Origin: an uncultured Collinsella sp.
Lineage (GTDB): Bacteria; Actinomycetota; Coriobacteriia; Coriobacteriales; Coriobacteriaceae
Direction of reading: 5' to 3'
Assembly (NCBI GenBank): GCA_900547505.1
Contig: URGY01000017.1
Span: 1-16,222 of the forward strand
Length of the DNA: 16,222 nucleotides
The notes under the pieces were generated by a model that saw nothing but the letters and a program-made list of their open reading frames with translations, did no database searches and was not told the DNA's origin. The position numbers were made by a program, and so were the translations under genes. Below are positions 1,903 to 2,552 of this stretch, in pieces; position 1 is the first letter of the stretch, and each line of letters starts with the position of its first letter.

Positions 1903-2196
1903 CTAGGCCTCGACGACGGCGTAGATGTCGTCGGCGCGCATGAGCAGATACTTCTCGCCGTCGACCTTGACCTCGTTGCCACCGAACTTACCGTAGATGA
2001 CAACGTCGCCGACCTGAACGTCCATGGGGATGCGCTCGCCCTTGTCGTTGACCTTACCGGCGCCAACGGCAACGATGGTGCCGCGCTGCGGCTTCTCCTG
2101 AGCGTTGCTGGCGATGTACAGACCAGAAGCGGTCTTCTGCTCGGCCTCGTCGGGCTTGACCAGGACGCGATCTGCAAGCGGCTTCAAAGACGACAT
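1903..2196 (-). CDS. groS: 10-kDa co-chaperonin GroES (Hsp10)
   Basis: The 97-residue protein has the length and signature of GroES, the heptameric lid of the GroEL cage. It begins with LKPLADRVLVKP, has a mobile-loop region around residues 17-33 (AEQKTASGLYIASNAQEKP), then GTIVAVGAGK, and ends with the IYGKFGGNEVKVDGEKYLLM strand region and DDIYAVVE. An AAAGGAGG Shine-Dalgarno lies directly upstream of the ATG. It is the first gene of the groES-groEL operon. Its leader is unusual: a GC-rich hairpin next to the ribosome-binding site, and farther upstream a degenerate CIRCE-like sequence at the edge of a large palindromic element. Confidence 0.98.
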   Translation of the reverse strand: MSSLKPLADRVLVKPDEAEQKTASGLYIASNAQEKPQRGTIVAVGAGKVNDKGERIPMDVQVGDVVIYGKFGGNEVKVDGEKYLLMRADDIYAVVEA

Positions 2197-2288: not shown

Positions 2289-2323
2289 GTTATACAACAC
2301 GGAGTCAAAAAATCTTATTTTTT
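2289..2323 (-). promoter_or_regulatory. Putative groES-groEL promoter region with an A/T palindrome
   Basis: On the minus strand this AT-rich stretch in GC-rich DNA holds TTGACT (2303-2308) and TATAAC (2289-2294), which resemble -35 and -10 hexamers. They are only 8 bp apart, so they cannot be one standard sigma-70 promoter. TATAAC may be a -10 element with a poor -35. Next to them is a perfect inverted repeat, AAAAAAT at 2307-2313 and ATTTTTT at 2317-2323. The groESL promoter is expected here, but the exact start site cannot be read from the sequence. Confidence 0.35.
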
Positions 2324-2348
2324 GGCACTTAGATTTTCTGAATGCCGG
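2322..2348 (-). promoter_or_regulatory. Degenerate CIRCE-like inverted repeat (possible HrcA site)
   Basis: The plus strand reads TTGGCACTT, 9 bases, then GAATGCCGG. The HrcA operator CIRCE is TTAGCACTC-N9-GAGTGCTAA. The left half matches 7 of 9, the right half 5 of 9, and the 9-bp spacer is exact. It lies about 126 bp upstream of the groES ATG, a plausible place for heat-shock control. The weak right half also belongs to the outer arm of the palindromic element at 2325-2552, so the resemblance could be chance. Confidence 0.3.
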
Positions 2349-2552
2349 GGGATAACTTGTGCGCAGCTCCCGTGTGGCGCCGGAGGGGCGGGATATAAGG
2401 TTTCCTGCTCGGGCAGTCCTGCTCGCACGAAGGCCACATTAAGTGGCCTTCGGCTCGTGCGGAACTCGCGATAAACCTTATATCCCGCCCCTCCGGCGCC
2501 ACACGGGAGCCAGGTTAACTAATTCGGACCCGGCATTCAGAAAAGCCAGTGC
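2325..2552. repeat. Nested inverted-repeat element of about 228 bp upstream of groES
   Basis: This fills most of the 380-bp gap between the YtcJ-type gene and groES. Outer arms at 2334-2349 and 2529-2544 are perfect 16-bp inverted repeats (ends TTTTCTGAATGCCGGG), extended by GCACT (2325-2329) and AGTGC (2548-2552). Middle arms at 2366-2403 and 2473-2510 are perfect 38-bp inverted repeats. The centre is a hairpin: 9 bp pairing 2429-2437 with 2443-2451, followed by a possible CGCACGA/TCGTGCG extension around a bulge (2424-2430 with 2455-2461). CCTGCTCG is directly repeated at 2404-2411 and 2418-2425. The middle unit is flanked by CA on both sides (2364-2365 and 2511-2512), possibly a 2-bp target duplication. 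No open reading frame of note is inside. It may be a MITE-like element, a terminator for the upstream gene, or both. Confidence 0.85.

What the first reader, a model, noticed from the sequence alone, without database searches (positions are those of the whole stretch)
2325..2552. Nested three-tier palindrome of about 228 bp upstream of groESL
A 16-bp outer pair, a 38-bp middle pair and an inner hairpin are all present, the first two perfect. Random DNA would not hold 38-bp perfect arms 69 bp apart. Matching arms suggest a recent or selected element: a MITE, a composite terminator, or a structured RNA. Its place between groESL and an accessory amidohydrolase makes a regulatory effect on heat-shock genes possible.
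Basis: seen in the sequence. Interest (0 to 1): 0.7.

Follow-up and report, generated by a model that had tools for sequence, protein, structure and literature searches.

The report
Dispersed palindromes with self-copied arms
The palindrome upstream of groES is one of about thirty similar DNA hairpins scattered between genes of this gut bacterium; they share the same hairpin tip, while each has its own long stem whose two sides seem to be kept matching by copying one another.

Summary
The palindrome is real: 38-bp perfect arms (2366-2403/2473-2510), a 16-bp outer pair and a capped hairpin; 100 Markov sequences of equal length gave at most 14 bp. It is not special to groESL. It is one copy of a dispersed intergenic family: 32 distinct places in one complete relative, and 15 of 296 sampled phylum genomes, all 15 in the same order. 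The shared part is an asymmetric ~65-bp cap (2405-2471). The arms differ between loci and strains, yet pair almost perfectly within a copy. In 137 distinct copies, chosen for pairing arms: 4665 Watson-Crick pairs, 25 G.U, 26 A.C, so no RNA-wobble excess. At three loci the cap lies inverted between matching arms and flanks. Best reading: a REP/BIME-like family of intergenic hairpins with a selected cap; the arms are homogenised at the DNA level, most likely by replication template switching. Cap function is unknown; a binding factor is inferred. Against: some loci carry wholly unrelated arms, one copy has unpaired arms, and Y1 transposase domains are commoner in copy-rich genomes. I found no evidence for groESL regulation.

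The parts
2334..2349 (+). left outer arm (groES side); its groES-proximal end overlaps a conserved groES-upstream box by 3 nt
   Evidence: overlap and box
2529..2544 (-). right outer arm, inverted repeat of the left outer arm
2366..2403 (+). 5' middle arm, 38 bp; sequence differs between loci and strains
   Evidence: variable between strains
2473..2510 (-). 3' middle arm, perfect inverted copy
2405..2471 (+). conserved asymmetric cap (core) shared by the family
2429..2451 (+). terminal cap hairpin, 9-bp stem and 5-nt loop
2310..2337 (-). conserved groES-upstream region with inverted AAATCTTA and AGATTT halves; the box CACTTAGATTT is at 2326-2336
   Evidence: a role as operator is inferred
1903..2196 (-). 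groES
   Evidence: groES is annotated at the orthologous place in NZ_OY725717.1
2577..4220 (-). amidohydrolase gene; stop at 2577, far end approximate (taken from the 1644-bp annotated relative)

Best explanation
The palindrome is one member of a dispersed, REP/BIME-like family of intergenic hairpin elements of Coriobacteriales. Each element has a conserved asymmetric cap of about 65 bp and two arms of roughly 20-50 bp, specific to locus and strain, that are almost perfect reverse complements. The family is shown; the arm mechanism is inferred. When one arm changes, the change is copied into the other by DNA-level template switching between the arms during replication (or equivalent recombination within the palindrome), which occasionally also inverts the cap between the arms and may copy flanking sequence across and so lengthen the palindrome. 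The cap is kept constant by selection, presumably because a host factor recognises the hairpin tip (inferred, not shown). Strains also exchange whole alleles at a locus by ordinary recombination (inferred from chimeras). The element is not specifically a groESL regulator.
For: Dispersed family with near-invariant cap. Arms differ between loci but pair within a copy. At locus 1186862, 21 aligned genomes have nearly constant flanks but four arm allele classes; 19 of the 21 passed the motif filter and have 0-2 arm mismatches each. At locus 1759679 unrelated arm classes occupy one site (16 of 21 loci passed the filter), one pair with flank identities 0.99 and 0.90 and arms 0.5. Standing mismatches: 25 G.U, 26 A.C in 137 distinct elements, and 17 to 15 on the transcribed strand of tandem genes. 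Cap inversions at three loci: L179 against L333, L361 against L362, L406 against 18 others. The left outer arm abuts a groES-upstream box found in 61 of 64 relatives, so the right outer arm is probably the inverted copy. Template switching between inverted repeats is reported to give arm homogenisation and spacer inversion (PMC8604942, abstract and passages) and has been proposed to create and maintain perfect hairpins (PMC8794818, passages).
Against: The wholesale arm differences at some loci (about 0.5 identity, near what I take as the floor of the alignment method) are larger than single template switches explain; allele exchange with unsampled lineages or an unknown process is needed. In 25 copies from other lineages mismatches were 6 G.U to 17 A.C (binomial p 0.03), a bias towards G.U on the opposite strand that I cannot explain. 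A looser count over extended arms gave 96 G.U to 79 A.C (p 0.23). One G042 copy (L173) is a chimera with unpaired arms; such copies were excluded by the arm-score filter before the mismatch counts. Orthologous copies are not independent. The first systematic inversion test over 137 elements flagged one locus, and groES, 1186862 and 1759679 show none. No experiment shows a cap-binding factor.
Confidence: 0.58

Rival explanations
1. A structured RNA (3'-UTR or leader element, for example an RNase III site or mRNA stabiliser) whose stem is kept by selection on RNA pairing.
For: Strong folds; covariation in 18 of 24 pairs; an asymmetric conserved cap. In 12 of 14 loci with a sense gene upstream, the 5' arm begins within 50 nt of that gene's predicted stop. 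The mismatch bias in other lineages (6 G.U, 17 A.C) would fit G.U tolerance on the opposite strand.
Against: No wobble excess in the C. aerofaciens-type copies in the element frame or the transcribed frame; orientation relative to tandem genes is mixed (13 antisense, 7 sense of 28 loci); no Rfam match at gathering in the window.
Confidence: 0.2
2. A mobile or recently mobile MITE/REP-like element, moved by a transposase in trans, perhaps a Y1 (REP-associated) type.
For: Dispersed copies and order-wide distribution. At locus 2174928 only 4 of 12 genomes with both flanks carry the element. A possible empty site in L058 against L061. Y1 transposase domains in 6 of 6 copy-rich and 2 of 7 copy-poor genomes (Fisher p 0.02), confounded by kinship.
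Against: Ends are not shared between copies. Positions are largely shared: the element is in 21 of 21 aligned genomes at 1186862, and by motif in 19 of 22 at 1692677 and 16 of 21 at 1759679. No target duplication was seen by eye at L058/L061; no formal test was run. No match of the 228 bp in phage records; 4 exact core-word hits in viral contigs had no matching arms.
Confidence: 0.13
3. A phase-variable invertible switch flipped by a site-specific recombinase acting on the arms.
For: Cap inversion between conserved arms at three loci.
Against: No arm sequence common to the loci was found; 0 inversions among 15 groES, 19 (1186862) and 16 (1759679) copies.
Confidence: 0.05
4. A bidirectional terminator or insulator, at groES separating the amidohydrolase from the groESL promoter.
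For: Lies between the amidohydrolase stop and the groES-upstream box; 1 of 28 loci is in a divergent spacer (no genome baseline was measured).
Against: No hairpin followed by a T run found at 1850-2700.
Confidence: 0.15

Closest known systems
REP/BIME palindromic repeats (GTAG- and CGTC-tagged families; PMC3733652, abstract and outline seen)
   Same: Dispersed intergenic palindromes, mostly between tandem and convergent genes, often downstream of coding regions, sometimes in opposed pairs.
   Different: REPs are described as 20-40 bp; here elements are ~110-150 bp, the shared part is the cap and the stem is locus-specific. GTAG tag in 0 of 32 loci, CGTC at 4 (5' side) and 5 (3' side) of 32.
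Quasipalindromes corrected by replication template switching (PMC8794818 and PMC8604942, passages seen)
   Same: Arm homogenisation, paired changes, spacer inversion.
   Different: In the passages seen, described for short repeats in yeast coding genes and for RNA genes; here in a multi-copy family with a conserved cap and 20-50-bp arms.
MITEs (recalled)
   Same: Small, non-coding, dispersed, inverted arms.
   Different: No terminal repeats shared between copies; no target duplication seen.
EFASI RNA, Rfam RF02957
   Same: Long hairpin; weak match to the window.
   Different: 21 bits against a gathering score of 51.2.

Membership tests
REP/BIME | Multi-copy intergenic palindrome | tested here: met
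REP/BIME | GTAG or CGTC tag at the foot of the hairpin | tested here: not met
   GTAG 0 of 32 loci; CGTC 4 (5' side) and 5 (3' side) of 32
REP/BIME | Associated RAYT (Y1) transposase | tested here: inconclusive
   Y1 domains in 6 of 6 copy-rich and 2 of 7 copy-poor genomes; confounded by kinship, RAYT type not distinguished
MITE | Terminal inverted repeats shared by all copies | tested here: not met
MITE | Target-site duplication at empty sites | tested here: inconclusive
   one possible empty site, inspected by eye, no duplication seen; the 8 element-free alleles at 2174928 are too diverged
Intrinsic terminator | Hairpin followed by a T run | tested here: not met
   0 found at 1850-2700 (this copy only)
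Known structured RNA family | Rfam match at gathering score | tested here: not met
   0 matches in the window
RNA stem under pairing selection | G.U tolerated more than A.C | tested here: not met
   for C. aerofaciens-type copies; other lineages lean to A.C, 17 against 6
Template-switch homogenised palindrome | Near-perfect arms that change together | tested here: met
   exception L173
Template-switch homogenised palindrome | Spacer inversion between intact arms | tested here: met
   three loci

The most novel reading that the evidence does not exclude
An order-wide family of DNA hairpins in which the cap is the heritable information and the long arms are disposable, continually rewritten by self-templating. 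Selection would act on the palindrome as a structure, recognised with its cap by a dedicated Coriobacteriales protein; the stems of a multi-copy element would then evolve by concerted self-copying rather than by descent of sequence.
Probability: 0.3. Interest if true: 0.8.

Novelty: new variant of a known kind. Interest (0 to 1): 0.6.

Why it matters
It gives dozens of natural replicates per genome, in many strains, of long near-perfect palindromes that keep their arms matched while the sequence changes. That would make the rate and direction of template switching measurable in nature. It also warns that paired covariation, usually taken as proof of a functional RNA, may arise at the DNA level. 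A cap nearly invariant across an order points to an unknown recognition factor.

Tried and rejected
Rfam with loose thresholds gave microRNA precursors and EFASI far below gathering: generic long-hairpin similarity. An exact core word in viral contigs gave 4 hits without matching arms, taken as chance. No phage match of the 228 bp. The single plasmid-collection record with matches is an 899,693-bp C. aerofaciens record that carries groESL. Y1 transposase as mobiliser: partial association only, not resolved. Clean empty sites at locus 2174928: 4 of 12 genomes with both flanks have the element, and the 8 others are too diverged to read the junction.

Literature: in the titles and abstract starts listed for Collinsella with inverted repeat/hairpin/intergenic/noncoding RNA (20 of 4,145 listed), Collinsella with palindromic (20 of 88), Eggerthella with repetitive extragenic palindromic (1 of 1), Coriobacteri- with inverted repeat/intergenic/repeat family (20 of 74) and Collinsella aerofaciens with intergenic/repeat/hairpin (0 papers), I saw none that describes this family. 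Most subscription papers and all supplements were out of reach. PMC8040213 (passages only) reports 250 palindromic candidate RNAs from human microbiomes and may contain it. PMC10434271 (passages) has no occurrence of Coriobacteri-, Collinsella or Eggerthella. Searches were searches on mechanism and REPs.

Limits: gene calls for context came from my own codon-usage script, not an annotation pipeline. Elements were found by a motif filter that needs pairing arms (score 9 or more), so broken copies (L173; L186 looks degenerate) are under-counted; at the deeply sampled loci it kept 19 of 21 (1186862), 19 of 22 (1692677), 16 of 21 (1759679) and 15 of 16 (groES) loci given. The 137 distinct elements include orthologs. 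My partition into 32 loci is imperfect: at least L179/L333 and L344/L200 were split though each pair is one locus. Counts include opposite-strand shadow matches and its list was cut. One search scored 13 candidates per genome under strict filters, and its class split relies on the order of a cut list. On re-check I withdrew the statement that Y1 genes do not track copy number, weakened the outer-arm argument (the 16-bp arm overlaps the conserved box by only 3 nt), and for these and the mismatch bias in other lineages moved the best explanation from 0.62 to 0.58 and the transposon rival from 0.10 to 0.13.

Full report
Observation. Window-length Markov sequences reached at most 14 bp in 100 trials. 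Both strands fold far better than shuffles.

It is a family. The 228 bp matched 56 of 98 related genomes by BLAST, with up to 13 matches per genome; in the (cut) list, full-length matches are at groES-type places and the other places match mainly the middle. I aligned 24 copies (18 of 24 predicted pairs had double changes), built a covariance model and searched with it. Five C. aerofaciens-group genomes gave 36-49 raw matches each, including opposite-strand shadows; for the single-contig G042, 32 distinct places stand in the cut list. With stricter filters 64 of 98 relatives matched. In a phylum sample 15 of 296 matched; reading the order of the cut list, these are 15 of 23 genomes of the same order, 0 of 3 of the same class outside it, and 0 of 270 beyond.

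Anatomy. The constant part is a cap with near-invariant CAGTCCTG on one side and GTGCGGAACT on the other, closed by a terminal hairpin. Among 137 distinct C. aerofaciens-type elements there are three main cap subtypes, 58, 48 and 25, with 6 others; each looks like a compensating version of one short helix (my reading). Outward the arms lose similarity between loci: a short consensus for about 12 bp, then a G-rich 5' side, then no clear consensus. In genomes of other families of the order (unnamed) the arms are different again but in most copies shown still pair; a few of those loci were not centred on an element and show none.

Arms change together. At groES the element is at the same place in 14 of 16 relatives, with two cap and arm types. 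At locus G042:1186862, 21 genomes share nearly the same flanks but fall into four arm classes; the 19 that passed the motif filter have 0-2 arm mismatches each. At 1759679 unrelated arm classes occupy one site; one pair has flank identities of 0.99 and 0.90 with arms at 0.5. Over 387 orthologous pairs mean flank identity is 0.90 and arm identity 0.86, both arms moving together (r 0.975; partly expected from complementarity).

Mismatches. In the 137 elements 4665 pairs are Watson-Crick, 25 G.U, 26 A.C, 24 other and 8 gaps. On the transcribed strand of tandem genes the ratio is 17 to 15. Selection on RNA pairing should spare G.U; here it is not spared. Against this: an earlier set of 25 copies from other lineages had 6 G.U and 17 A.C (p 0.03), which on the opposite strand would be a G.U excess; and a looser count over extended arms gave 96 to 79 (p 0.23). 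All these sets were chosen for pairing arms.

Inversions. In G042 (L179) the cap lies inverted between nearly the same arms and flanks as in G001 (L333). The same holds for G005 against G043 at 2174928 (L361, L362) and for G007 (L406) against 18 genomes at 1692677. None appeared at groES (0 of 15), 1186862 (0 of 19) or 1759679 (0 of 16). Arm homogenisation plus spacer inversion is the reported result of template switching between inverted repeats (PMC8604942, passages), and template switching has been proposed to create and maintain perfect hairpins (PMC8794818, passages).

Flank copying, weaker evidence. A groES-upstream box is present (up to 1 mismatch) in 61 of 64 other groES upstream regions, two of which (L057, L061) carry an element. 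The left outer arm overlaps this box by 3 nt and continues its native surroundings (the extended string recurs in 14 of 64), so the right outer arm is probably the inverted copy. In L061 the outer end of one arm matches sequence present in the element-free relative L058, which fits copying of native flank but could also be a deletion remnant.

Counter-evidence. L173 (G042) is a chimera of two alleles of its locus with unpaired arms, and L324 and L197 look like partial chimeras. So recombination between alleles happens and broken copies exist. Template switching alone does not readily make wholly new arms. At 2174928 only 4 of 12 genomes with both flanks carry the element, so gain or loss occurs. 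Y1 transposase domains were found in 6 of 6 copy-rich and 2 of 7 copy-poor genomes, an association confounded by kinship.

Context. Of 28 loci with predicted neighbours, 20 lie between tandem genes (13 antisense, 7 sense), 7 between convergent genes and 1 between divergent genes; in 12 of 14 loci with a sense upstream gene the 5' arm begins within 50 nt of its stop (home-made gene calls, imperfect locus partition). This resembles REP placement (PMC3733652, abstract). At groES the element sits beyond the conserved box, so it is probably outside the groESL transcript (inferred); no intrinsic terminator was found.

Verdict. A real dispersed repeat with an unusual way of evolving: a conserved cap on self-matching, fast-changing arms. 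The family is shown; template switching is the most likely mechanism (0.58); function is open.

Noticed in passing
window 2310-2337 (groES strand): A region with inverted AAATCTTA/AGATTT halves; its box AAATCTAAGTG (up to 1 mismatch) lies upstream of groES in 61 of 64 other loci; a possible heat-shock operator unlike the CIRCE sequence as I recall it.
   Followed up: partly
L333 around 820-900; L363-L370 element-free alleles: A second intergenic inverted-repeat family with ends like TTGCGGTGAAATA/TATTTCACCGCAA in the C. aerofaciens group.
   Followed up: no
L162, L165, L169, L191, L192, L193, L194, L195: Elements occur as opposed pairs about 200-280 bp apart with their 5' sides outward; L189 instead has two copies about 2.8 kb apart around an 899-aa gene with 5' sides inward.
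   Followed up: partly
L167 1672-1969: One element locus lies beside three tRNA genes; the region matches 40 of 43 genus genomes.
   Followed up: partly
NZ_OY725717.1: An 899,693-bp C. aerofaciens record labelled plasmid 6 carries groESL and is probably chromosomal.
   Followed up: no
L173 1237-1290: Rfam match to Ref55 just above gathering (47.2 bits, gathering 43) beside the chimeric element; meaning unknown.
   Followed up: no
L182 1536-1637, L184 1498-1598, L181, L189: A cap variant (GTCAGGTCCTG on one side, GCGGAATCTACG on the other) with perfect arms, possibly a subfamily.
   Followed up: no
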